Assembly (NCBI RefSeq): GCF_003605755.1
Contig: NZ_RAHJ01000019.1
Location: forward strand, 320,331-384,330
Direction: 5' to 3'
Source of the DNA: Tsuneonella suprasediminis
GTDB taxonomy: Bacteria; Pseudomonadota; Alphaproteobacteria; Sphingomonadales; Sphingomonadaceae
Length of the DNA: 64,000 nt
Position numbers and translations under genes: made by a program. The first letter of the stretch is position 1. Each line of letters opens with the position of its first letter. This document shows, in pieces, positions 28,163-46,699 of the stretch. A model generated the notes under the pieces. That model saw only the letters and a list, made by a program, of their open reading frames with translations. It was not told the DNA's origin and did no database searches.

Positions 28163-28870
28163 TCAGATTGCAACATCGCCTGCATGGATGACACGGATTT
28201 CCCCGCTATCCAACGCCAGACACAAAGATCCATCGGGCTTCAACCCTTGGTAGCGACCGGAAACGACATCGCCTCCCGGCTCATGCACGGTTAGAACAGT
28301 TCCGATCTGGTGCGCGACAGCCTTCCAGCGGCGAAACATCGGTTCCGTGCCGAAACTACGCCATCGTTCCAATTCCCGAGCAAAAGACGATGCCAATGCA
28401 GTCGCGAAGCTATCGCGATTAGGTGCAGGGCCGATCTGCGACAAAGCGATGGTTTCGCGCCCAGTGACTTCCGGAGCCTTAACAAGGTTGACGCCTATCC
28501 CAATGACGACCGCGTGGGAGGTGCCTTCCAGCAGTATACCCGCCAGCTTGGCGCCCCTGAGAAGCAGGTCATTGGGCCACTTGAGCGAAAGCGCTGCAGG
28601 TTCAGCGAGAAATGGCGTAACCGCCTCGTACAAGGCCAGCCCCGCCAGAGGCGCGAGGGTCGGAGAGGGCGGATCCGACGGGCATACCCGCACTATGGTA
28701 GAGCCCATGAAGTTCCCCGTCCCATCAAACCACGCACGCCCCTGGCGTCCGTGGCCAGCGACTTGTCGATCCGCCACCAGCCAATCGCCCTCCGCAACGT
28801 ACTCGCCTGCATTCAGCTGTGAGACGAGGTCGGCATTGGTCGATCCGGTTTCTGCTACCGTACGGATCAA
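28163..28870 (-). CDS. birA: Biotin--[acetyl-CoA-carboxylase] ligase
   Basis: BirA (235 aa) activates biotin as biotinyl-AMP and attaches it to acetyl-CoA carboxylase and other biotin enzymes. The class I form is seen, with no N-terminal DNA-binding domain, so it is not a biotin repressor. Motifs are STNADL, the GRQGRAW biotin loop, LKWPNDLLL and KLAGILLE. The start is an unusual TTG at 28870 that overlaps the nuoN stop as TTGA with no clear ribosome site, so translation probably depends on coupling to nuoN. Confidence 0.93.
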   Translation of the reverse strand: MIRTVAETGSTNADLVSQLNAGEYVAEGDWLVADRQVAGHGRQGRAWFDGTGNFMGSTIVRVCPSDPPSPTLAPLAGLALYEAVTPFLAEPAALSLKWPNDLLLRGAKLAGILLEGTSHAVVIGIGVNLVKAPEVTGRETIALSQIGPAPNRDSFATALASSFARELERWRSFGTEPMFRRWKAVAHQIGTVLTVHEPGGDVVSGRYQGLKPDGSLCLALDSGEIRVIHAGDVAI

Positions 28871-34843: not shown

Positions 34844-35329
34844 CTATCGATACGGCGCATCGGCTTCAAGGTTCGCGGAGATCGCCCGCTCCCACTTGTC
34901 CCCGTTAGCCAGTAGTTTCGCCTTGTCGTACAGCAGTTCTTCACGCGTTTCCGTGGCGTATTCGAAGTTCGGCCCTTCGACGATCGCATCAACCGGACAG
35001 GCTTCCTGACAGAAACCACAGTAAATGCATTTGGTCATATCGATATCGTAACGCGTGGTGCGACGACTGCCGTCTTCCCGCGGTTCGCTCTCAATCGTGA
35101 TGGCCAGAGCTGGACAAGTGGCTTCACACAGTTTGCAGGCAATGCACCGCTCCTCCCCATTGGGATAACGGCGCAGCGCGTGTTCCCCACGGAAACGCGG
35201 CGACAAAGGGTTCTTCTCAAAGGGATAGTTGATCGTCACCTTGGGTTTGAAGAAGTACTTCAAAGTCAACCAATGCGCCTTCACGAACTCCCAAAGAGTG
35301 AAAGACTTTATGAGGTGAGCGACGCTCAT
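34844..35329 (-). CDS. nuoI: NADH-quinone oxidoreductase subunit I
   Basis: NuoI (161 aa) carries the N6a and N6b [4Fe-4S] clusters in the peripheral arm. The two ferredoxin motifs are [12 protein letters not shown] and [12 protein letters not shown], both complete. An N-terminal amphipathic helix starting [15 protein letters not shown] docks it to the membrane arm. The ATG at 35329 overlaps the nuoH stop (ATGA) and is preferred over an upstream in-frame start. Confidence 0.97.
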
Positions 35330-36378
35330 ACAGCGCCTCCATAACGAGTAAGCATCAACCAGCCAGATACGAGCACGACCCACAACAAGCTCATCGGCAG
35401 AAATACCTTCCAGCCAAGGCGCATGAGTTGATCATACCGGTAGCGCGGCACAGTTGCCTTCACCCAACTGAATATAAAAAAGAAAAACAGGATTTTGACG
35501 AGCAGCCAGACAAATCCCGGCACGACGTAAAGCGGGCCCCAGTCAAACGGGGGCAGATACCCCCCCCAGAAAAGCACCGCATTCAACGTGCACATCAGCA
35601 AAACGTTGGCATATTCGCCCAGCCAATAGAGCGCGAACGCCATCGAGCTGTATTCCGTCTGATAACCGGCAACGAGCTCGCTTTCAGCTTCGGTCAAGTC
35701 AAAAGGAGCGCGGGCAGTCTCCGCCATTCCTGAAATCAGGAATAGCACCCACATCGGGAAAAGGAGCGGGTTGGCGACAAATCCATTAATAAACCCAAGC
35801 ACGGTCCCTTTTTGCGCCTGCACGATCTCGTTCATGTTGAACGACCCTGCCCAGAGCACCACACAGATCAGGATAAATCCGATTGAGACTTCATACGAAA
35901 TCATTTGTGCGGCAGCCCGCATGGCGGAGAAGAAGGGGTATTTTGAGTTTGAGGCCCAGCCCGCGATGACGACCCCGTATACGCCCAGCGAACTGATTGC
36001 CAGAACATACAACAGCCCTACATTGATATCAGCGAGTATTGCGCCGGAATTGAACGGGATAACCGCCCACGCCAACAATGCGACCGTAAACGTTATGATC
36101 GGGGCAATCAGGAACAAGCCCTTGTTGGCGGCACTGGGAATAATTGTTTCCTGCAGAAACACCTTCAACCCATCGGCAAATGATTGCAACAGACCGAACG
36201 GCCCAACCACGTTTGGGCCCCTGCGTAATGCCATCGCCGCCCATATCTTGCGGTCGGCATAGATAATCATCGCCACGCCCAGCATCAGAGGCAGCGCAAT
36301 CAACAAGATCCCGCAAATCGTGGCTACGAACCACGCCCATTCGTAGTTCATGCCGAGGTTCATAAAGAATTCGGTCAT
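35326..36378 (-). CDS. nuoH: NADH-quinone oxidoreductase subunit H
   Basis: NuoH (350 aa) forms much of the quinone-binding channel where the peripheral and membrane arms meet. It is polytopic with about eight helices. Conserved segments include [26 protein letters not shown] (acidic and Arg quinone-site region) and [22 protein letters not shown], the E-channel loop. The ATG overlaps the nuoG stop (ATGA). Confidence 0.97.
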
Positions 36379-38381
36379 TCCGCAGCCTCCGCCAGTTCAC
36401 CGCCATGAAGCAGCTCAGCACTGCATTGCTGCATCACCGTGCTTGCTCGGGCGATTGGGTTGGTGAGGTAGAAATCTTTGATCGGATAGGCATCGATCGT
36501 TCCCGAAACCTTGGCCGCCTTAACTTTTGGCAACGCGCCATAACCAGCCAACCCCTCCTGGCCCAGCGCAGGCATTTCCGCGATCATGGCCGATTGCAGC
36601 TGTGCGAAGTTGTCGAATCCGACCGAGACACCAAACGCATCGGCCAACGCACGCAGGATTGTCCAGTCTTCCCGCGCATCTCCTGGAGCGAATACCGCCT
36701 TTTCCGCAAATTGCACGCGGCCTTCGGTGTTGACGTACGTACCGTCTTTTTCAGCATACGAGGCGGCGGGGAGGATCACATCTGCCGCATGAGCCCCCTT
36801 GTCGCCATGATGGCCGATGTACACTTTAAGTGAATCCGCGAATGGTGTGTAGTCGACCTCGTCTGCACCAAGTGCGAGAACCACTTTAGGCTGGGCGTCA
36901 ACGATATCCGCCATCCCACCTTTCTGCGCATATCCGAGCATGAGCCCGCCCATGCGCGAGGCCGAAAAGTGAAGCACGTTGAAGCCGTTCCAGTCGCCTT
37001 TGACCAGCCCAAGCGGTTCGACGAGCGAAAGGCCCGCGGAAAGCGCTCCTTTCGCGAGGGCTGCGCCGCCAAGAATGAGCGCCGGGCGTTGGGCTTGGGC
37101 AAACGCGTCCAGCACGTCCGTCGGCAACTTGGAAAGCACGGATAGATTATTGCCAAGAAATGTTGCGGGGAAGGTTGTTTCCCATTCAGGTCCGACTACG
37201 AATACCTTTGCGCCGCGCTTAACAGCCTTCCTAAGCCGTACATTGACCAGTGGGGCTTCCCAGCGGACATGACTGCCGACAATCAGGATTGCATCAGCAG
37301 TTTCGATCCCTGCAAGAGTTGAATTGAAACTGACTGCTGCAAGGCTGGACACATCGTAGTCCATCCCCGTCTGTCGTCCTTCAAGAAGATCGGAACCCAT
37401 CGCCTTCAGTAACGCCTTGGCAGCATACATCGTTTCGCAGTCGAGCAAATCACCCGCAATGGCGGCAATGCTATTGCCAGGCTTGACCGCAGCGATCTTC
37501 TTAAATGCTTCTTCCCAACTTGCTGCTTGCAGTTTGCCGTTTTTGCGGATCCACACCTTATCAAGCCGTCGCCGCGTGAGGCCGTCGACCTGATAGCGAG
37601 CCTTATCGGAAATCCACTCTTCGTTCACATCGTCGTTGATGCGGGGTAATGCGCGCAGGACTTCGCGACCGCGACTATCGAGCCGTATATTTGCGCCGAT
37701 CGCATCGCTCACATCGATGCTCAGCGTCTTTTTCAACTCCCAAGGGCGTGCCTCGAAAGCATAAGGACGTGAAGTCAGCGCGCCGACGGGGCAAAGATCG
37801 ATGACGTTCGCGCTCATCTCATGCTTCGCTGCATGCTCAAGATACGTCGTGATTTGCATACTTTCGCCGCGATAAAGCGCACCGATTTCATCAACCCCGG
37901 CGATTTCCTCGCTGAAACGAACGCACCGTGTGCAGTGGATGCACCGGGTCATGACCGTCTTGATGAGCGGTCCCATGTACTTCTCGGTCACGGCCCGCTT
38001 GTTTTCATGATAGCGAGAACCGCCGCGACCGTAAGCCACCGACTGATCCTGCAGATCGCATTCCCCGCCCTGATCGCAAATCGGGCAATCGAGCGGGTGG
38101 TTGATAAGGAGGAACTCCATCACACCTTCGCGCGCCTTTTTGACCATCTCGCTATCGGTGCGAATTTCCTGACCTTCTGTTGCAGGCAACGCGCAAGATG
38201 CCTGCGGCTTGGGAGGGCCAGGCTTCACTTCGACCAGACACATGCGGCAATTGCCCGCAATGCTAAGCCGCTCGTGATAGCAGAAACGCGGAATCTCCTT
38301 ACCGGCAAGCTCACATGCCTGCAGCACGGTGGCCCCATCGGGAACCTCGATTTCCTGTCCGTCTACGGTGACCTTAGGCAT
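36375..38381 (-). CDS. nuoG: NADH-quinone oxidoreductase subunit G
   Basis: NuoG (668 aa) is the large iron-sulfur subunit of the peripheral arm. The N-terminal [2Fe-2S] domain has [15 protein letters not shown]. It is followed by [19 protein letters not shown] (N4/N5 region, His ligand included) and CIHCTRC with a later Cys. The C-terminal molybdopterin-oxidoreductase-like region has lost its cofactor role in complex I. The gene lies 34 nt behind the secreted repeat protein, the largest internal gap of the nuo operon apart from those flanking it. Confidence 0.97.
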
Positions 38382-38415
38382 TAGTTACGCACCACTGAAT
38401 TGAAGAACCAACCTG

Positions 38416-39108
38416 TCATGAAAGCTTCCCGCGAGCTGCATGTGCGGCGAGTGCATAGGCAAGGGCTGAACGTAAGCTGGCTTCGTCGAACGACAATTTC
38501 TGCCCTTCAAACGCACAAGGCCCGAAGTTCGGAGCCAGACGGTTTATCGCAACTCGCTCATCTTTTGTTGCAACCGGAGTTCGAAGAACTCTATCAGTCT
38601 CGACCGGAGCGATCGCAGCGAAACAACGAGCGAACTCTTCAACAATCACGTCCGCCCGATCCTCTACATCTGCTTCTATAATTCGTTTGGCCACTTCTTC
38701 TTGAGAAGGGGCAGCAGCAGGATCGTCAGCAAACCACGCCGGTGGCGAGTCCGGGAAGGTTCTAAGATACCACGCCTCAGAAAGCGAACCGCGTATTTCG
38801 CGATAACCTGACTTCAAGGCGGCGTAACCATTCACACAATGCGTCTCGCTGTTTGGGAACGTGATGAGATCTTGTATCTTGGCCGGAACTGGATTGAGCA
38901 AATAATCTTTAATTCGATCAGATCGATATGTCGCTACACAACGCCCAAAGAAACTGAGCGTTGATCGCGCGTCACGTACGTTGTTGAATTTCTCTTTGGA
39001 AAACCGTGAGCCAGTTACCGAACTCCGTTCGGATGTCGACTGGGCCTGTGCGCCAGTCGCACAAACCAGTCCTAGGATTCCCAACACAGATAGCACGGTA
39101 CGAATCAC
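38416..39108 (-). CDS. Secreted four-cysteine repeat protein inside the nuo operon
   Basis: This 230-aa protein of unknown function has a signal peptide (about residues 1-22, ending AQA) and is expected in the periplasm. Two halves look duplicated: [21 protein letters not shown]...C and [21 protein letters not shown]...C, each followed by a helix with R-[GS]-[SA]-L. The Cys pairs are 57/91 and 162/198, suggesting one disulfide per half. Its GTG start overlaps the nuoF stop as GTGA, and nuoG follows after 34 nt, so it is co-expressed with complex I. It is not a canonical complex I subunit. Confidence 0.85.
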
Positions 39109-40394
39109 TCGGCTGCCTCTGCCATGTTGCCAGCAGCCGCGATACGGCGCTCAATTTCCGGGCGAAAGTGGCGTATCAAACCTTGAATGGGCCACGCTGC
39201 TGCGTCGCCAAGTGCGCAAATTGTATGCCCTTCCACCTGTTTGGTGACCTGCTGTAGCATGTCGATTTCCTCGACAGCCGCATCTCCTGTTTCGAGGCGT
39301 TTCATCATGCGCCACATCCAGCCTGTACCCTCGCGGCAAGGCGTACACTGGCCGCAACTCTCGTGTTTGTAGAAGTGGCTTAAACGGCTGATTGCCCGAA
39401 CGATATCGGTGGACTTGTCCATCACAATAACCGCTGCGGTCCCTAGGCCGGAGCCGACCTCTTTCAAGCCATCGAAATCCATCGGCGCATCCCAGATTAG
39501 ATCCGCAGGGACCAACGGAACGGACGAACCGCCAGGAATCACCGCAAGCAGATTATCCTTGCCCCCACGAATCCCGCCACAATGTTTTTCGATCAATTCG
39601 CTGAAGGGGATGCTCATCGCTTCTTCAACGACGCACGGATTTTCCACGTGCCCGCTGATCTGGAAAAGCTTGGTACCCTTATTGTTTTCCCGACCGAAAC
39701 TGGAGAACCACGAAGCACCACGACGCATAATAGTCGGAGCAACCGCGATCGATTCAACATTGTTCACAGTCGTCGGACAACCATACAGCCCTGCCCCCGC
39801 CGGGAATGGAGGCTTCAGTCGAGGTTGCCCTTTCTTGCCTTCAAGGCTTTCAATCATCGCGGTTTCTTCGCCGCAGATATACGCGCCCGCTCCACGATGC
39901 ACGAATACGTCGAAATCGTAACCGGAACCCGCAGCGTTCGTGCCCAGAAGACCGGCATCATATGCCTCTTGAACGGCAGCAAACAGCACTTCTGCTTCGC
40001 GAATGTACTCACCGCGAATATAAATATATGCTGCGCGTGCACGCATCGCGTAACCAGCAACAAGAGCGCCTTCGATCAACTTGTGCGGATCGTGGCGAAT
40101 GATTTCGCGATCCTTGCACGAGCCCGGCTCCGACTCATCAGCGTTGATGACGAGAAAGCTAGGACGTCCGTCCTTGCTTTCTTTCGGCATGAACGACCAC
40201 TTCATTCCGGTTGGAAATCCGGCGCCGCCCCGACCACGCAGCCCGGATGCCTTAATCTCATCGATAATGGCATCCTGCCCCTTGGCGAGAATATCTTTGG
40301 TGTTGTCCCAATCACCACGTGCCCGCGCAGCGTCGAGGTGCCACGACTGGAAACCGTAAAGGTTGGTAAAAATGCGATCCTTATCGGCGAGCAT
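39105..40394 (-). CDS. nuoF: NADH-quinone oxidoreductase subunit F
   Basis: NuoF (429 aa) binds NADH and FMN and carries the N3 [4Fe-4S] cluster. The FMN/NADH loop [16 protein letters not shown] and the cluster motif [15 protein letters not shown] with a later Cys are complete. The ATG at 40394 matches the family N-terminus [14 protein letters not shown]; the long open frame upstream of it overlaps small genes and is not part of the protein. It shares one nucleotide with the stop of the 46-aa gene (TGATG). Confidence 0.97.
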
Positions 40395-40534
40395 CAGCCG
40401 AGCCCTCCATTGGCAAGGAAATAGACGGCAACCAATAGGATTACCGCAATGGCGCCAAACTTGACTACCCCCATCAGCACCTTCCAGGCGATGACGATAA
40501 GTATAAGAGCGATAACGATTGTGGCGATGCTCAT
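40394..40534 (-). CDS. 46-aa two-TM protein between nuoE and nuoF
   Basis: A 46-codon frame starts at ATG 40534 and reads [19 protein letters not shown] followed by a second helix ending FLANGGLG. Almost the whole protein is two short hydrophobic helices (about residues 3-17 and 22-42). Its start overlaps the 56-aa gene stop as ATGA and its stop overlaps nuoF as TGATG, which argues strongly for translation. GGAAAGG lies upstream. No family recognised. Confidence 0.7.
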
Positions 40535-40701
40535 GGCTCTTGCCTTTCCGAAGCCTTCGCCCCGAAAATTCCGAATCCCCCAAGCAAGAAACCAAGGATC
40601 GCCCAGACAACCCATGCCTCGCCCTGCAAAAATTTCACGACAGCTAGCGTCAGAAATATAATGCCGATGATCGGCAAGCCTTTGGCTACCGGCTTTGGCA
40701 T
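40531..40701 (-). CDS. 56-aa two-TM protein between nuoE and nuoF
   Basis: Translating 40701 to 40531 on the minus strand gives a 56-aa protein starting [17 protein letters not shown], with a second helix around [16 protein letters not shown] and a charged end KASERQEP. Two membrane helices are predicted by eye (about residues 9-23 and 30-47). Its ATG overlaps the nuoE stop (TGATG) and its TGA overlaps the next start (ATGA). It is below common gene-finder length limits and easily missed. Function is unknown. Confidence 0.7.
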
Positions 40702-41369
40702 CACCACTCCCCCCGGTAGTCGTGGTTTTCACCAACCATAGCGGTCAAAGTCGTCGGACCGCCGCTTGGCTCGCTGGTATGCCGCCCCGGCTCCTGCGTA
40801 CCTTCCTTGGGTAGTTCACCCGCCGAAAGTTTATCGAGTACAGCTTCAAACCGTTCCGGGGTGAGATCTTCGTAGTTGCCATCGTTGATCTGAACCATCG
40901 GCGCGGTGGCACAATTGCCCATGCACTCGACCTCGGTGAGCGTCCACATACCGTCATCGGTAGTGTGCCCGCGCTTCATTCCACGCTTAGCGCAGACAGC
41001 GAATATATCGTCGGATCCACGCAGCATACAAGGCGTGGTACCGCACACCTGCACATGGAAACGCCCCACCGGCGCGAGGTTGTACATGGTGTAGAACGTC
41101 GCAACTTCGAGCACCCGGATCACCGGCATGTCGAGATAGGTCGCCACATATTCGATCACCGGGATTGGCAACCAACCTTGCGTGTTGGTTGCTTCCCCCA
41201 CCTGCCGCTGGGCATAATCGAGCAGCGCCATAACAGCACTCTTCTGCCGCCCTGCAGGATAACGGGCGATAGCGGCCTTGGCCTTCTCTTCCCATGCAGG
41301 TGCAAATGCGAAATCACCCCATGCGGCGCGCAGTTCGGGGGTGTCGGGTGCGAGTGCGCGGTCAGCCAT
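40701..41369 (-). CDS. nuoE: NADH-quinone oxidoreductase subunit E
   Basis: NuoE (222 aa) carries the N1a [2Fe-2S] cluster next to the FMN. The thioredoxin-like fold ligands are CGTTPC and CMGNC, and the N-terminal helical part MALLDYAQRQ...VIEYVATYL is typical. The C-terminus has an extra Gly/Pro/Thr-rich tail of about 40 residues. The ATG at 41369 overlaps the upstream 60-aa gene by 8 nt. Confidence 0.97.
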   Translation of the reverse strand: MADRALAPDTPELRAAWGDFAFAPAWEEKAKAAIARYPAGRQKSAVMALLDYAQRQVGEATNTQGWLPIPVIEYVATYLDMPVIRVLEVATFYTMYNLAPVGRFHVQVCGTTPCMLRGSDDIFAVCAKRGMKRGHTTDDGMWTLTEVECMGNCATAPMVQINDGNYEDLTPERFEAVLDKLSAGELPKEGTQEPGRHTSEPSGGPTTLTAMVGENHDYRGEW

Positions 41370-41544
41370 TTTTGGCCTTCCTGTTTTTCAAAGTGGAGGA
41401 AAATGTCAGGATAGCAAACACAGCAACCATCAACGCCAGACCAATGACGAAGCTGCCCAGATCAAGGACGCCAGTGGAATCCATGATTAAGAGGACAACG
41501 CAAAGACACAGTCCTGAGACATATGCGCTCACTTCCTTGCTCAC
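41362..41544 (-). CDS. 60-aa two-TM protein between nuoD and nuoE
   Basis: A 60-aa frame starts at GTG 41544, overlapping the nuoD stop as GTGA, and ends 8 nt inside nuoE. It has two hydrophobic helices (about residues 7-22 and 28-49) and a basic end [12 protein letters not shown], so both termini probably face the cytoplasm. No family was recognised. The start-stop overlap on both sides and its membrane character match the other small genes of this operon. Confidence 0.7.
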
Positions 41545-42755
41545 CGATCACACTCCCCGAACACCACATCGATCGCGCCAAGAATAGCGGTCGCGTCCGG
41601 CAGCATATGGCCCTTGCTCATGAAATCCATCGCCTGAAGATGGCTGAAAGCAGTCGGCCGAATCTTGCAACGATAAGGTTTGTTGCTGCCATCGCTGACC
41701 AGATAGACGCCAAATTCGCCCTTGGGGCTTTCAGTAGCGACATAGACTTCACCCGCGGGAACGTGGAAGCCTTCGGTATATAGCTTGAAGTGATGGATCA
41801 GACTTTCCATTGAAGCCTTCATCTCACCGCGCTTCGGCGGCACGACTTTGCGATCGGTGCTGCTCACCGGGCCTTCCGGCATTTCAGCGAGACACTGGCG
41901 CATGATGCGTGCCGACTGACGCACTTCTTCAACACGGACCATAAACCGGTCGTAGCAGTCAGAATTGGTACCGACGGGGATTTCGAAATCCATTCGGTCG
42001 TAAACATCGTAAGGCTGGCTCTTGCGAATATCCCAGGGGATGCCCGCCGCACGGATCATAGGGCCGGAGAAGCCCCATGCCAGAGCGTCTTCCTTGCTCA
42101 CCACTGCGATATCGACATTCCGCTGTTTGAATATGCGGTTGTCCATCACCAGGCTCATCGCGTCTTCAAACAAACGCGGAAGCCGGTTGTCGAGCCAGTC
42201 ACCGATATCGGTCAGCAGTTTGAGCGGAACATCCTGATGGACGCCACCCGGACGAAACCACGCACTGTGCATGCGTGCACCGCTGGCGCGCTCGAAGAAA
42301 TTGAGGCAATCCTCGCGAATTTCGAACACCCAGAGGTTCGGCGTCATCGCGCCGACATCCATCACGTGGCTGCCGATGTTGAGCATGTGGTTGCAGATGC
42401 GGGTCAGTTCCGCAAACAGCACCCGCAGATATTGTCCGCGCAGGGGAACTTCCAGATTGAGCAGTTTCTCAATCGCCAGCACATAACTGTGCTCCATCCC
42501 CAATGGCGAGCAGTAATCAAGCCGGTCAAAATATGGCAAAGCCTGCAAATAGGTCTTGTGCTCAATAAGCTTTTCGGTGCCACGATGCAGCAGGCCAACG
42601 TGCGGGTCGATCCGCTCAATAATCTCGCCATCAAGCTCCATAACCATCCGGAGCACTCCGTGCGCCGCAGGGTGCTGCGGGCCAAAGTTGATCGTATAGT
42701 TACTGATGACCTCGTCACCTGTTGTGGGTGATTGTTCGAGTTGAAGGCCGCTCAT
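41541..42755 (-). CDS. nuoD: NADH-quinone oxidoreductase subunit D
   Basis: NuoD (404 aa) is the 49-kDa subunit that helps form the quinone site at the end of the iron-sulfur chain. It shows [14 protein letters not shown] with the conserved His pair, [10 protein letters not shown], and the C-terminal [12 protein letters not shown]. The ATG at 42755 is preferred to an in-frame ATG 15 nt upstream because it overlaps the lipoprotein stop as ATGA. nuoC and nuoD are separate genes here. Confidence 0.97.
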
Positions 42756-43318
42756 GCTGTGCAGCTCCATTTTCCTTGCGAGAATGTTGTCTCGCCCGTT
42801 GGGCCCTTCACCCGAAGGTCAGCGCCCCATTCGCTCTTTCCATTCGCACGGGAAGGCTCGTCTTCGCCGCGCAGGACGGAAACCGTAAACCCATCACCAG
42901 CCAGTATCGGGCCGGATTCTATCACTTGCAGACCGCCAGCTTCGACACCGGGCAACATGAGCTGACGTCCATCGATCACCAGCACACCTTTGCCTTTGTC
43001 GTCGGCATCGTTTTCGCTGCCCGCCACCAGCAAGGAACGCCCTTGATAGATAAAGCTGCACCCGCCAGCGACCTTGCCCAAAGCCATTGGGGCATCGCTG
43101 GCAAGTGGCATGAGTCTGGTGCTGCCCTCGCTCGCCAGAACAGGCTGCGCGTTGACTTCTGCGACGGATGACGCGCCTGCATCGTTCGCACCGAGCGAGG
43201 ATACACCTGCACGGGCCGCATAATCGTCGGCGCCCTCACCCGTAGAGGCGTCGTTGCTCTTAGAGCAACCTCCAGCTGCGAGGGCCGTCAGACAAAGACA
43301 GATAGCGGTTCGCTTCAT
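42752..43318 (-). CDS. Putative lipoprotein between nuoC and nuoD
   Basis: This 188-aa protein has an N-terminal signal with a lipobox-like end A-G-G-C (Cys18; Ala at -3 is weaker than Leu), so outer- or inner-membrane lipoprotein export is likely but not certain. The mature part is acidic and has no recognised domain; a segment [16 protein letters not shown] may form beta strands. Start and stop both overlap their neighbours as ATGA, locking it between nuoC and nuoD. Function is unknown. Confidence 0.8.
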
Positions 43319-44238
43319 TTGTCGCCCGCCGGTTTAGGTGCAGCAGACTTGCCTGCACCAGACTTCTTTGCGGTGGGCTTTTTTTCTGCCGCCTTCTTCG
43401 GCTGGGTTGCTGGCTTCGTATCTTGCGCCGATGCCGCCCTTGGCTTGCGTGCCGGGCGATCTTCGGTGGGCTTCGGCGCGCCAGCCTCTTCTGCGCCTTT
43501 ATCCTTAGCCGGCGCCGGAGCAGACTCGCTTTCTGCTGCCTTTTTGTTCGCTGCCTTCCCAGCCCCTGTTTCAGATAGCTTTTCCGTCGACTTCGGCGTG
43601 GGTGCCGCCGGAGTGTCAGCACCAGCTTTCTCATCACCCGGAAGCACGTAATTCGCGCCTTCCCACGGGCTCATAAAATCGAACTGGCGCAAATCCTGTG
43701 CGAGTTCGACAGGCTCATACACAACGCGCTTCTCGTCTTCCGAATAGCGAAGTTCGACGTAGCCGGTGAGCGGGAAATCCTTTCGGAAAGGATGCCCCTC
43801 GAAACCATAATCGGTCAAAATACGGCGCAAGTCCGGATTACCCGCAAACACAACGCCATACATGTCGAACACTTCACGTTCGAGCCACCCGGCGTTTGGC
43901 CAGAGCGTGGTGACGGTGGGGACGGGCGTCGCTTCGCTGGCCGAAACTTTGACCATCACGCGATGATTCTTCGTCACCGAGAGCAGCATGTAAACGACTT
44001 CAAACCGCTCGACACGGTCAGGAAAGTCGACCCCGGCCATTTCCATCAGTTGCTGGTATTCGTGTTCGTCACGAAGCAGGCGCAACGCGTCTTCCACGCG
44101 ATCTCGCACGACAGTGAGAACAACCTCGCCATGCTGCTCTTTCGCAGTGATGAGCATGTCGCCCAACGCAGCGGCCAATGCGTCTTTGACACCTTGGTTC
44201 GAAGCAAACCGGGGAGCGGGATGAAGGACCTGAGTCAT
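43315..44238 (-). CDS. nuoC: NADH-quinone oxidoreductase subunit C with long basic tail
   Basis: NuoC (307 aa) is the 30-kDa peripheral-arm subunit. The core (residues 1-200) has the signature REVFDMYGVVFAGNPDLRRIL and GHPFRKDFPLTGYVE. The last about 105 residues form a low-complexity Ala/Lys/Pro/Glu-rich tail, ending in [21 protein letters not shown]-like sequence that recalls histone H1. Typical NuoC proteins stop near residue 200, so the tail is an extension, not a fusion to a known domain. The TGA overlaps the lipoprotein start (ATGA). Confidence 0.95.
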   Translation of the reverse strand: MTQVLHPAPRFASNQGVKDALAAALGDMLITAKEQHGEVVLTVVRDRVEDALRLLRDEHEYQQLMEMAGVDFPDRVERFEVVYMLLSVTKNHRVMVKVSASEATPVPTVTTLWPNAGWLEREVFDMYGVVFAGNPDLRRILTDYGFEGHPFRKDFPLTGYVELRYSEDEKRVVYEPVELAQDLRQFDFMSPWEGANYVLPGDEKAGADTPAAPTPKSTEKLSETGAGKAANKKAAESESAPAPAKDKGAEEAGAPKPTEDRPARKPRAASAQDTKPATQPKKAAEKKPTAKKSGAGKSAAPKPAGDK

Positions 44239-44252
44239 AATCAGCGCAAGCC

Positions 44253-44804
44253 TTACCGTTCGATCGTACCGGAGCGGCGAATTTTCCGCTGCAACTGCAT
44301 TACACCATAGAGCAGCGCTTCAGCAGTCGGCGGACACCCGGGCACGTAGATATCAACCGGCACGATCCGGTCGCATCCACGCACGACCGAATAGCTGTAA
44401 TGATAATATCCACCGCCGTTGGCGCAGCTCCCCATGCTGATGACGTACTTCGGTTCCGACATCTGATCGTAAACCTTGCGAAGCGCAGGGGCCATTTTGT
44501 TGCACAGCGTTCCGGCAACAATCATCACATCGCTCTGGCGCGGGCTGGCGCGGGGGGCAACGCCGAACCGCTCCATATCGTAACGCGGCATATTCACGTG
44601 AATCATTTCGACCGCACAGCAAGCGAGGCCGAACGTCATCCACCATAAGCTGCCGGTGCGCGCCCATTGAAACAGCTCTTCAGTGCTGGTGACGAGGAAG
44701 CCCTTGTCATTCACTTCAGTCTGCAACGCGTGGAAGTAATCCTGATCCGGGGTACGGAATTCACCCGGCTGCGCGGCGGCAGGAAGGCTCTGATCTACTC
44801 CCAT
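44253..44804 (-). CDS. nuoB: NADH-quinone oxidoreductase subunit B
   Basis: NuoB (183 aa) holds the terminal N2 [4Fe-4S] cluster that reduces quinone. The cluster ligands are in [18 protein letters not shown] and YVPGCPP. The ATG at 44804 (MGVDQSL) overlaps the end of nuoA by 10 nt and is preferred over an in-frame ATG 21 nt upstream. nuoC follows after 14 nt. Confidence 0.97.
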
Positions 44805-45169
44805 TCCAGGGCTCCCTTCTTCCACGCATAAGCAAGGCCAATTGCCAGTTCACCCAAGAACACCATCATCGTGATCCAGCCCGGCCATCCCGTCATGTCG
44901 AGACTGACAGCCCACGGAAAAAGGAATGCTGCTTCCAGATCAAAAATGATGAACAGGATCGCGACGAGATAAAAGCGCACGTCGAACTGGCTGCGCGGAT
45001 CTTCGAACGCGGGAAAACCGCATTCATATTCGCTCAACTTGTCGGAAGTCGGGTTATGTGCACCCGTCAGCCGGGCAACGCCCATCGGCAGAAACACGAA
45101 CAGAGCCGAGAGTCCGAGGGCAATGGCGAGAAAAATCAGGATTGGGAGATACTGGCTGAGATCGACCAC
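44795..45169 (-). CDS. nuoA: NADH-quinone oxidoreductase subunit A
   Basis: NuoA (124 aa) is a three-helix membrane subunit at the junction of the two arms. The conserved loop [19 protein letters not shown] with the mobile Cys and the helix [15 protein letters not shown] are present. The GTG start at 45169 has AAGGGAA six nt upstream and no alternative start nearby. It is the first gene of the nuo operon. Confidence 0.97.
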
Positions 45170-45204
45170 GAATGATTCCCTTTGGGGGCCTGTGAATGTG
45201 CCCG

Positions 45205-45233
45205 CCTCTAGGCCCCGCTCCCGATTGGTGCAA
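45205..45233 (-). promoter_or_regulatory. Candidate nuo operon promoter
   Basis: On the minus strand TTGCAC (45233-45228) and TAGAGG (45210-45205) are separated by 17 nt. Transcription would begin about 30 nt before nuoA. The region is the only gap of useful size in front of the operon. The -10 is a weak match, so support is positional more than sequence-based. Confidence 0.35.
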
Positions 45234-45236
45234 GGG

Positions 45237-45260
45237 TGCGGGGATGCAAAAATCCCCGCA
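45237..45260 (-). terminator. Hairpin behind the aldehyde dehydrogenase gene
   Basis: TGCGGGGAT (45237-45245) and ATCCCCGCA (45252-45260) form a perfect 9-bp stem with a 6-nt loop, 8 nt after the aldehyde dehydrogenase stop. No T-run follows on the minus strand, so it may be a weak terminator or an mRNA 3' end stabiliser that isolates the nuo promoter. Confidence 0.5.
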
Positions 45261-45268
45261 TTCGCGCC

Positions 45269-46699
45269 TTATTTCATCATTCCCTTGACCGCTTTCTCGG
45301 TCGCAGCCCCATATGGAGGCTTGAATCCACCCAACTTTGCGATGTCGATCTTAGGCTGGGTGTAAATGCTGCGGGCGTGACTGAACTCGCGGAAGCCTTC
45401 GACTCCATGATATGAACCTATACCCGATGGCCCCACCCCGCCAAACGGCAGATCATCCATCGAGACATGGAAAATCACATCGTTTACCGTGACCCCGCCG
45501 GAAATCGTGCGGGTGAGCACCTTTTCACGCTCAGCTTCATCGTCACCGAAATAATACAGCCCCAGCGGACGATCATGTGCATTGACGTAATCGATTGCCT
45601 CATCGATGTGTTTGTAGGTTTTCACAGGAAGAACCGGGCCGAAGATTTCCTCCTGCATCGCTTTCATGTCATCCGTTACATTCCGCAGAATGGTCAGCGG
45701 CATTTTGCGCGTGTTCGTCGCGGAAAAGTCCTCGCCAGCGGGATTGACTTCGATTACCTCAGCACCCTTGGCCTTCGCATCTGCTACCAATCCCTGCAGG
45801 CGTTCGAAATGACGGTCGCTGACAACGGAAGCGTAGTCTTCGTTGTCGCGCAACGTCGGGTACATGGTGTGCACACCGAGCTGTACCGCAGCCACCGCGC
45901 CGTCCTCCGTTTCTTCCGGAACATACATATAATCCGGCGCAAGACAGATCTGCCCCGCATTCATCATCTTCCCTAGCGCGATCCGTTCCCCTGCCTTTGC
46001 AATATCCGCGTTACGGCCCAGGAATACGGGCGATTTGCCACCCAATTCCAACGTCACCGGGACAAGGTTCCGCGCTGCGGCCTCCATCACCTTGCGCCCT
46101 GTCGCAGTCGATCCGGTGAAAACAAGGTGATCGAACGGGAGCGAAGAGAATGCATGGGCCACTTCGGGGCCACCGGTCACCACAACGCATTCCGCCGGGT
46201 CAAAATATCTGGCGACCAGTTCCTCCATCAGAGCGGAGGTTCGCTCAGTGAACTCGCTCGGCTTGATCATGGCCCGATTGCCAGCAGCGAACGCCTGCAT
46301 GAGTGGATTGAAAGACAAGTTTACCGGAAAATTCCAAGGCGCAAGGATACCGATCACGCCCTTTGGTTCATAGCGAACCTCCGCCTTCGCTCCCAGCAGC
46401 CCGAGCGGGAATTGCACTTTGCGCTTTTCAGGCTGAGACCATTTAGACAGATTTTTCAGACAATATTTGCCGAAACCGATGGTTCCGGCGATATCGGTAA
46501 TCATCGATTGCATCGGGCTGCGATTGCCAAAATCGACATTCATTGCCCGGCACAGCGCGTCACCATTTTCCTTGAGCAAGGCGATCGCACGCTGGATCCG
46601 GTCTTTACGGGCGGACAACGGCTCGGGCCGCGCAGACGTAAATGCCGTTCGCTGCTGCAACAGCATCGCTTCGAGTTCTGTTTTGCGATCATCAGCCAT
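45269..46699 (-). CDS. Coniferyl-aldehyde-dehydrogenase-type NAD(P) aldehyde dehydrogenase
   Basis: This 476-aa cytoplasmic aldehyde dehydrogenase oxidises an aldehyde to the acid. Motifs are ILAPWNFPVNL, the catalytic Glu in TLELGGKSP, the catalytic Cys in NAGQICLAPDY and EEIFGPVLPV. Similarity in style is to the CalB/coniferyl group, which also contains long-chain aldehyde enzymes with a hydrophobic C-terminus; substrate is uncertain. The ATG at 46699 with AGGAGAG six nt upstream is chosen over a far upstream frame start. It is divergent from the thiolase gene. Confidence 0.88.
   Translation of the reverse strand: MADDRKTELEAMLLQQRTAFTSARPEPLSARKDRIQRAIALLKENGDALCRAMNVDFGNRSPMQSMITDIAGTIGFGKYCLKNLSKWSQPEKRKVQFPLGLLGAKAEVRYEPKGVIGILAPWNFPVNLSFNPLMQAFAAGNRAMIKPSEFTERTSALMEELVARYFDPAECVVVTGGPEVAHAFSSLPFDHLVFTGSTATGRKVMEAAARNLVPVTLELGGKSPVFLGRNADIAKAGERIALGKMMNAGQICLAPDYMYVPEETEDGAVAAVQLGVHTMYPTLRDNEDYASVVSDRHFERLQGLVADAKAKGAEVIEVNPAGEDFSATNTRKMPLTILRNVTDDMKAMQEEIFGPVLPVKTYKHIDEAIDYVNAHDRPLGLYYFGDDEAEREKVLTRTISGGVTVNDVIFHVSMDDLPFGGVGPSGIGSYHGVEGFREFSHARSIYTQPKIDIAKLGGFKPPYGAATEKAVKGMMK

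What the first reader, a model, noticed from the sequence alone, without database searches (positions are those of the whole stretch)
38416..43318. Five non-canonical genes woven into the nuo operon
A lipoprotein (nuoC/D), a 60-aa two-TM protein (nuoD/E), 56- and 46-aa two-TM proteins (nuoE/F) and a secreted protein (nuoF/G) all sit at start-stop overlaps or very short gaps. Extra reading frames are known in the nuo operons of Paracoccus and Rhodobacter, but I do not recognise these five. Three are tiny membrane proteins and two are exported, which suggests a lineage-specific complex I accessory or assembly set.
Basis: partly seen in the sequence, partly recalled or inferred. Interest (0 to 1): 0.82.

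Follow-up and report, generated by a model that had tools for sequence, protein, structure and literature searches.

The report
Passenger genes inside respiratory-complex operons
Five small unfamiliar genes sit tightly between the genes for respiratory complex I in a Tsuneonella bacterium; they are real, but relatives gain, lose and swap such genes in the same gaps and carry similar ones in the ATP-synthase operon, so most look like passengers of energy operons and only one tiny membrane protein looks like a plausible complex I partner.

Summary
In detail: five non-core genes lie between nuoC and nuoG, eight of nine junctions overlapping. Four are clearly genes (homologues in the same slots; changes mostly synonymous); none matches Pfam or NCBIfam. 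In 95 family loci 203 of 379 nuoC|D-F|G junctions carry >=120 extra bases, against 3 of 64 in other families of the order. Content turns over: the closest relative (NuoF 99%) has an empty nuoF|nuoG site, one congener lacks all five families, and the secreted FG family is scattered on the tree (30 changes; shuffles 33). Nor is it special to complex I: the ATP-synthase operon has 36 of 160 filled junctions (a lipoprotein at atpG|atpD in 14 of 40), ribosomal genes 0 of 150, nuoI-L 6 of 90. Inserts are mostly membrane-like or exported (217 of 276; background 56 of 177). A ribosome-binding motif precedes nuoG in 32 of 34 empty but 22 of 59 filled sites. Best reading: coupled envelope-protein cargo riding in energy operons; the 46-aa nuoE|nuoF protein (50 of 50 hits beside nuoF) is the one plausible complex I accessory.

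The parts
42752..43318 (-). Lipoprotein-like protein, 188 aa (cysteine 18 after LAAGG), between nuoC and nuoD; predicted small beta-barrel; slot CD
   Evidence: 17 members; C18, C87, C186 invariant; pLDDT 82, pTM 0.71; weak lipocalin/avidin-like Foldseek matches, best E 0.023; 15 genomes in nuo, 16 elsewhere
41362..41544 (-). 60-aa protein with two hydrophobic stretches, GTG start overlapping the nuoD stop; slot DE; family seen only in window, L013 and L042
40531..40701 (-). 56-aa protein with two hydrophobic stretches, first of two in slot EF
   Evidence: 25 members, loose family, mean column identity 28%
40394..40534 (-). 46-aa hydrophobic protein (AWK-x3-G-x2-K pattern) immediately upstream of nuoF; best candidate for a complex I partner
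38416..39108 (-). 230-aa secreted, predicted all-helical protein of two tandem repeats, each with two conserved cysteines (C57/C91, C162/C198); slot FG
   Evidence: 42 of 49 members aligned; pLDDT 83, pTM 0.77; halves align, hhalign 98.5%; best PDB Foldseek E 2.3
39105..40394 (-). nuoF; its EAAE-encoding 3' end carries the GAGG-type motif that precedes nuoG in empty sites
36375..38381 (-). nuoG
40701..41369 (-). nuoE
41541..42755 (-). nuoD (alternative start 42770)
43315..44238 (-). nuoC, with a roughly 100-aa Ala/Lys/Pro-rich C-terminal tail

Best explanation
Most of the inserts are translationally coupled passenger genes. In this family (f1 of the searches: Tsuneonella and relatives) genes for small membrane, lipo- and secreted proteins settle at stop-start junctions of the hydrophilic-module genes of nuo (C|D to F|G) and of the F1 genes of atp. 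At nuoF|nuoG the insert begins on the nuoF stop and uses the ribosome-binding motif that the nuoF 3' end provides for nuoG in empty sites; nuoG is then read by coupling or from a weaker site. The cargo is co-expressed with respiratory complexes and kept by moderate purifying selection for envelope functions of its own, but is often lost, duplicated in tandem or replaced. Of the five, the 46-aa protein behaves differently (tree-coherent, found nowhere else in the genomes searched) and may be a true complex I associated subunit or assembly helper. Shown: presence, slots, turnover, control operons, predicted localisation, loss of the motif before nuoG. Inferred: co-transcription, coupling at nuoG, envelope function, independence from complex I.
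For: Filled junctions (>=120 nt) at nuo C|D-F|G: 203 of 379 in 95 family loci, 195 of the 203 with a non-repeat frame of 40 aa or more; other families of the order 3 of 64, other orders 4 of 40. Control operons in the family: ribosomal rplX-rplR 0 of 150, atp 36 of 160, 31 of them with a called frame, nuo I-L 6 of 90. A lipoprotein-like family at atpG|atpD in 14 of 40 genomes. Membrane-like or exported by a hydropathy rule: nuo inserts 217 of 276, atp 24 of 32, background 56 of 177. Scatter on the nuo tree: FG family 30 changes for 38 loci versus shuffled mean 33 (minimum 28); SnoaL-like DE 10 versus 11.7; loose 56-aa family 20 versus 22. Congeners kept different FG paralogues. SD-like motif before nuoG in 32 of 34 empty versus 22 of 59 filled sites (p 2e-8); 50 of 59 filled sites keep the motif at the end of nuoF. 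Other nuo cargo includes cupin, nitroreductase, pyruvyl-transferase and SnoaL-like proteins.
Against: Tree-coherence of the 46-aa family (18 changes versus 36 shuffled) and lipoprotein (8 versus 16). The FG family is rarely found outside nuo: 23 of 25 hits in 60 relatives are at nuoF|nuoG, and among 289 genomes of the class 2 of 4 hits are in nuo, one clear one (G123) and one weak one (G309) not; a complex I role fits this too. In the 38 genomes read for both, nuo C|D-F|G (96 of 152) is filled more often than atp (36 of 160 in 40 genomes), so nuo is favoured. Inserts of the two operons hardly share families (one weak cross-match). Sequence alone cannot tell passenger from accessory. Coupling at nuoG is not shown; at nuoD and nuoF no motif difference was seen (21 and 60 usable starts).
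Confidence: 0.6

Rival explanations
1. Lineage-specific complex I accessory or assembly set: the five proteins bind or help build complex I, the exported ones from the periplasmic side, the small ones in the membrane arm.
For: Slot-locked families; 46-aa protein 50 of 50 beside nuoF; 46-aa gene and lipoprotein in 10 of 11 congeners; nuo filled more often than atp.
Against: Empty FG site in the nearest relative and a congener lacking all five families; scattered FG and SnoaL-like DE families; lipoprotein relatives elsewhere; similar inserts in atp; enzyme-like cargo in some slots.
Confidence: 0.15
2. Mixed case: the 46-aa protein alone is a complex I subunit or assembly factor, the other four are passengers.
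For: One hit per genome in 50 of 138 genomes, 50 of 50 within 800 bases upstream of nuoF; tree-coherent, 18 changes versus 36 shuffled; A16, K18, G22, K25 and A36 kept in at least 90% of 43 members.
Against: Not found in 88 of 138 genomes, although 134 of 139 genomes of a similarly drawn set have NuoF; a vertically inherited passenger would look the same.
Confidence: 0.4
3. The inserts act in cis: what matters is the extra translated segment, which displaces the ribosome-binding motif of nuoG (and perhaps nuoE) and so sets the subunit ratio; the product is secondary.
For: SD-like motif before nuoG in 32 of 34 empty versus 22 of 59 filled sites, before nuoE in 19 of 22 versus 25 of 58.
Against: dN/dS of 0.16-0.45 in most usable pairs shows that the products matter; empty and filled sites coexist within one genus; no difference at nuoD and nuoF.
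Confidence: 0.12
4. Spurious open frames in spacers.
For: Some junctions elsewhere hold what look like short dispersed repeats (clusters 7, 9, 12, 17, 21, 22, judged by eye).
Against: Protein-level conservation, invariant cysteines, confident folds for two, mostly synonymous changes.
Confidence: 0.03

Closest known systems
Unidentified reading frames in nuo operons of Paracoccus and Rhodobacter (recalled; one paper found in a listing only)
   Same: Extra frames between nuo genes in Alphaproteobacteria. L128, a locus from another order (taxon not named by the tool), has filled D|E, E|F, F|G and G|H junctions.
   Different: L128 inserts joined none of the window's families; one of them is DUF5333, which the window inserts do not match.
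Supernumerary subunits of alphaproteobacterial complex I (three in Paracoccus denitrificans; passages of PMC8115037 seen)
   Same: Lineage additions that co-purify with the core enzyme there.
   Different: That they are encoded outside nuo is recalled. No direct comparison was made; the window proteins match no Pfam family near cut-off.
Insertion of new genes and ORFans into existing operons (The Life-Cycle of Operons; recalled, paper not held)
   Same: Young genes inserted into old operons.
   Different: Here the same junctions of two energy operons are filled repeatedly with membrane-like or exported proteins across one family, while the ribosomal junctions read are untouched.

Membership tests
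Complex I accessory or assembly set | Present with an otherwise intact nuo operon in close relatives | tested here: not met
   empty FG site in L013; L021 lacks all five families. Nearly met within the genus for the 46-aa gene and lipoprotein (10 of 11)
Complex I accessory or assembly set | Found only at nuo | tested here: inconclusive
   met for the 46-aa family (50 of 50); not met for the lipoprotein (16 of 31 outside); nearly met for the FG family (23 of 25)
Complex I accessory or assembly set | Co-purifies with complex I or is needed for its assembly | not testable with these tools
   needs bench work
Known Pfam or NCBIfam families | Profile match above cut-off | tested here: not met
   Pfam; NCBIfam (five window proteins; FG family)
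Operon passenger genes | Presence varies between close relatives with the core operon intact | tested here: met
Operon passenger genes | Inserts of the same kind in an unrelated operon | tested here: met
   atp 36 of 160; ribosomal 0 of 150
Operon passenger genes | Co-transcribed and translated with the operon | not testable with these tools
   only overlaps and SD-like motifs were read

The most novel reading that the evidence does not exclude
Energy operons of this family serve as a standing expression platform for envelope proteins: cargo is exchanged at fixed stop-start junctions of the hydrophilic-module genes, captures the downstream gene's ribosome-binding site, and thereby both co-expresses the cargo with respiration and retunes subunit stoichiometry. 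The FG protein would be a new periplasmic fold of tandem disulfide-bearing helical repeats.
Probability: 0.2. Interest if true: 0.78.

Novelty: new variant of a known kind. Interest (0 to 1): 0.55.

Why it matters
Gene neighbourhood is widely used to guess function, and the nuo operon is among the most trusted neighbourhoods. Here it is crowded with genes that come and go, so guilt by association would label many unrelated envelope proteins as complex I factors. The family also offers natural pairs of filled and empty junctions in close relatives, with which the cost and use of inserting a gene into a central energy operon, and the role of the displaced ribosome-binding site, can be measured directly. 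Two of the protein families have confident predicted structures and no named family.

Tried and rejected
A merged 'lipoprotein' cluster (29 rows) proved on alignment to join two unrelated sets; 12 SnoaL-like DE rows were taken out and treated apart. An antisense hit of that merged profile in L058 was taken as chance. Seven of the 49 FG members (L032 four, L057 two, L083 one: long, short or odd) were left out of the alignment used for the fold. Of 43 genomes with a lipoprotein hit, 12 were left out of the nuo/elsewhere count (weak or partial hits, or nuo not on the same contig; one of them, G530, does lie in nuo). That nuo and non-nuo copies never met in one genome was not claimed as exclusion: only about two overlaps are expected. 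A possible recombination tract between window and T. flava was not tested.

Limits. The nuo tree has weak nodes and is made of nuo proteins, so change counts are rough. My frame caller favours abutting frames, so overlap counts outside the window are biased (47 of 58 FG inserts start on the nuoF stop); window junctions were read directly. Five of the 36 filled atp junctions hold no called frame. The control sets differ: 40 atp genomes were chosen by hand, mostly from the insert-rich part (38 of them also read for nuo); the ribosomal and nuoK sets are the 30 best-matching of 59 and of 57 genomes. The export rule is crude; frames under 40 aa, repeat-like clusters and loci outside the family were dropped before its count; its background is frames of at least 70 aa from L138-L157, which include the lipoprotein relatives themselves and one nuo locus (for 70-250 aa: 29 of 99). 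The first SD rule was shaped on the nuoF tail; the second is general. Class-wide searching scored at most 10 candidates per genome.

Not searched: Foldseek viral library, plasmid and phage collections, PADLOC, PHROGs. Fold search gave nothing usable for the FG protein. Rfam: nothing over the gathering score in 35300-45800. PDB sequences: none for the FG family, only weak matches for the 46-aa family (photosystem I subunit XII, E 0.018) and lipoprotein (E 0.4).

Literature: searches were seen as listings; I noticed none on inserts in nuo or atp operons of this family. Passages of PMC8115037 and PMC8762328 were seen; no paper was read whole. 'Not found' means with those terms in that open library.

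Full report
Observation. The window holds a complete nuo operon on the minus strand, nuoA from 45169 to nuoN ending at 28867 (membrane-arm genes named by reading). NCBI places the genus in Erythrobacteraceae, Sphingomonadales; the search tool's own 'family' (f1) is wider and unnamed.

They are genes. I fetched 120 nuo regions: 10 congeners, 84 others of the family (about one per genus), 16 of other families of the order and 10 of other orders, and called frames in the junctions. Clustering gave an FG family of 49 members in 38 loci (48 at nuoF|nuoG, one at nuoG|nuoH, in tandem up to four), a 46-aa family of 43 (all nuoE|nuoF), a lipoprotein family of 17 (all nuoC|nuoD), a loose 55-70-aa family of 25 (24 at nuoE|nuoF, one at nuoD|nuoE) and a 60-aa family of three. 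Between window and T. flava the lipoprotein has dN 0.039 and dS 0.155, the 56-aa gene dN 0 and dS 0.105; the 46-aa gene is identical and the 60-aa gene has too few changes. In other congeneric pairs dN/dS of the inserts is 0.16-0.45 apart from two pairs that are probably not orthologous (0.47 and 0.84), against 0.07-0.18 for nuoD and nuoF and 0.18-0.28 for nuoC. So they are selected, with less constraint than nuoD and nuoF.

What they are. None has a Pfam or NCBIfam match near cut-off (Pfam; NCBIfam). The 230-aa FG protein has a signal sequence and is predicted with fair confidence (pLDDT 83, pTM 0.77) as all-helical; its halves align to each other (hhalign 98.5%, E 2.8e-15), each with two cysteines invariant in the 42 aligned members. 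No solved structure resembles it (best Foldseek E 2.3) and no PDB sequence matches. One distant member, with no nuo gene in the 7.4 kb read around it, is fused to a TonB C-terminal domain (L137), which fits a periplasmic place. The lipoprotein is predicted as a small beta-barrel with weak lipocalin- or avidin-like matches. Its relatives outside nuo (L138-L155, 18 loci) have a MutL-like neighbour in 7 and a DnaB-like neighbour in 6 (gene names are my reading of the sequences). The 46-aa protein is two short hydrophobic stretches around conserved Lys and Gly.

Turnover. Mapped on a tree of Nuo proteins, presence needs 30 changes for the FG family (shuffled mean 33, minimum 28), 10 for the SnoaL-like DE family (11.7), 20 for the loose 56-aa family (22.1), 8 for another 60-aa DE family (8.8), but 18 for the 46-aa family (36) and 8 for the lipoprotein (16). 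So two families are inherited coherently and the rest look scattered. The nearest relative, with NuoF 99% identical, has nuoF and nuoG touching (TAATG) where the window has the 230-aa gene. Of 11 congeners, 10 have the 46-aa gene and 10 the lipoprotein, 7 the FG family; L021 has none of the five. In the FG gene tree the window's copy pairs with the second of two tandem copies of L027 (support 1.0); L015, L017, L018 and L019 fall in a clade with L027's first copy (0.974), L016 lies weakly near it and L022 elsewhere with L025: congeners kept different paralogues. Only 8 of 121 loci hold the FG, 46-aa, 56-aa and lipoprotein families together.

Not only nuo. Junctions with 120 or more extra bases, nuo C|D, D|E, E|F, F|G: 21, 62, 65 and 55 of 95, 95, 95 and 94; A|B 0 of 95, B|C 5 of 95, G|H 21 of 89. 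Of the 203 filled C|D-F|G junctions 195 hold a non-repeat frame of 40 aa or more. Other families of the order have 3 of 64 and other orders 4 of 40 at these four junctions (3 of 112 and 6 of 70 over all seven). In the family the F1 operon has 36 of 160 (H|A 0, A|G 9, G|D 16, D|C 11), 31 of them with a called frame, and a lipoprotein-like family at atpG|atpD in 14 of 40 genomes. Ribosomal genes rplX-rplR have 0 of 150 and nuoI-nuoL 6 of 90, none over 196 bases. In the 38 genomes read for both, nuo C|D-F|G has 96 of 152, more than atp. Nuo inserts are membrane-like or exported in 217 of 276, atp inserts in 24 of 32, background frames in 56 of 177 (rule and background are rough, see limits). Some other nuo inserts look like enzymes with no evident link to complex I: a cupin (D|E), a pyruvyl transferase and a nitroreductase (F|G) in L016, a cupin-like protein in L101, SnoaL-like proteins in 12 loci.

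How it may work. In empty sites the last codons of nuoF (EAAE) contain a GAGG-type motif just ahead of the overlapping nuoG start (32 of 35 by a rule shaped on this tail; 32 of 34 by a general rule). In filled sites the nuoF tail is kept (58 of 59 end in AE; 50 of 59 keep the motif), the insert starts on the nuoF stop in 47 of 58 cases (caller biased towards this), and a motif before nuoG is found in 11 of 59 or 22 of 59 (p 2e-8). A similar shift is seen before nuoE (19 of 22 empty, 25 of 58 filled, p 0.0008), not before nuoD or nuoF. I infer that the insert captures the ribosome-binding site and that nuoG is then translated by coupling or from a weaker site. Co-transcription is inferred from the packing.

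Judgement. The 46-aa gene is the exception: single hit, 50 of 50 beside nuoF in 50 of 138 genomes, inherited coherently. Whether any product touches complex I needs purification or deletion, which sequence cannot replace.

Noticed in passing
window 43315-43650: NuoC carries a roughly 100-aa Ala/Lys/Pro-rich C-terminal tail; NuoC length spreads from about 200 to over 400 aa in the 95 family loci but is 200-239 aa in 23 of 26 loci outside it.
   Followed up: partly
L137:814-1773: A distant FG-family member with no nuo gene nearby is fused to a TonB C-terminal domain.
   Followed up: partly
window 40170-41669 against L013: High identity (0.96-0.99) between window and T. flava here against 0.81-0.98 elsewhere, with no change at all in the 46-aa gene: possible recombination tract.
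   Followed up: no
atpG|atpD junction, e.g. L164, L165, L168, L170 and ten others: A roughly 110-130-aa lipoprotein-like family sits between the gamma and beta subunit genes of ATP synthase in 14 of 40 genomes.
   Followed up: partly
L043 and L032, junction nuoF|nuoG: Four tandem copies of the FG-family gene.
   Followed up: no
L046, L055, L062, L063, L065, L091, L099: Some nuo junctions hold what look like short dispersed repeats rather than genes (clusters 7, 9, 12, 17, 21, 22, judged by eye).
   Followed up: no
L128:3121-3519: In a locus from another order the nuoF|nuoG junction holds a DUF5333 protein, next to other extra frames.
   Followed up: no
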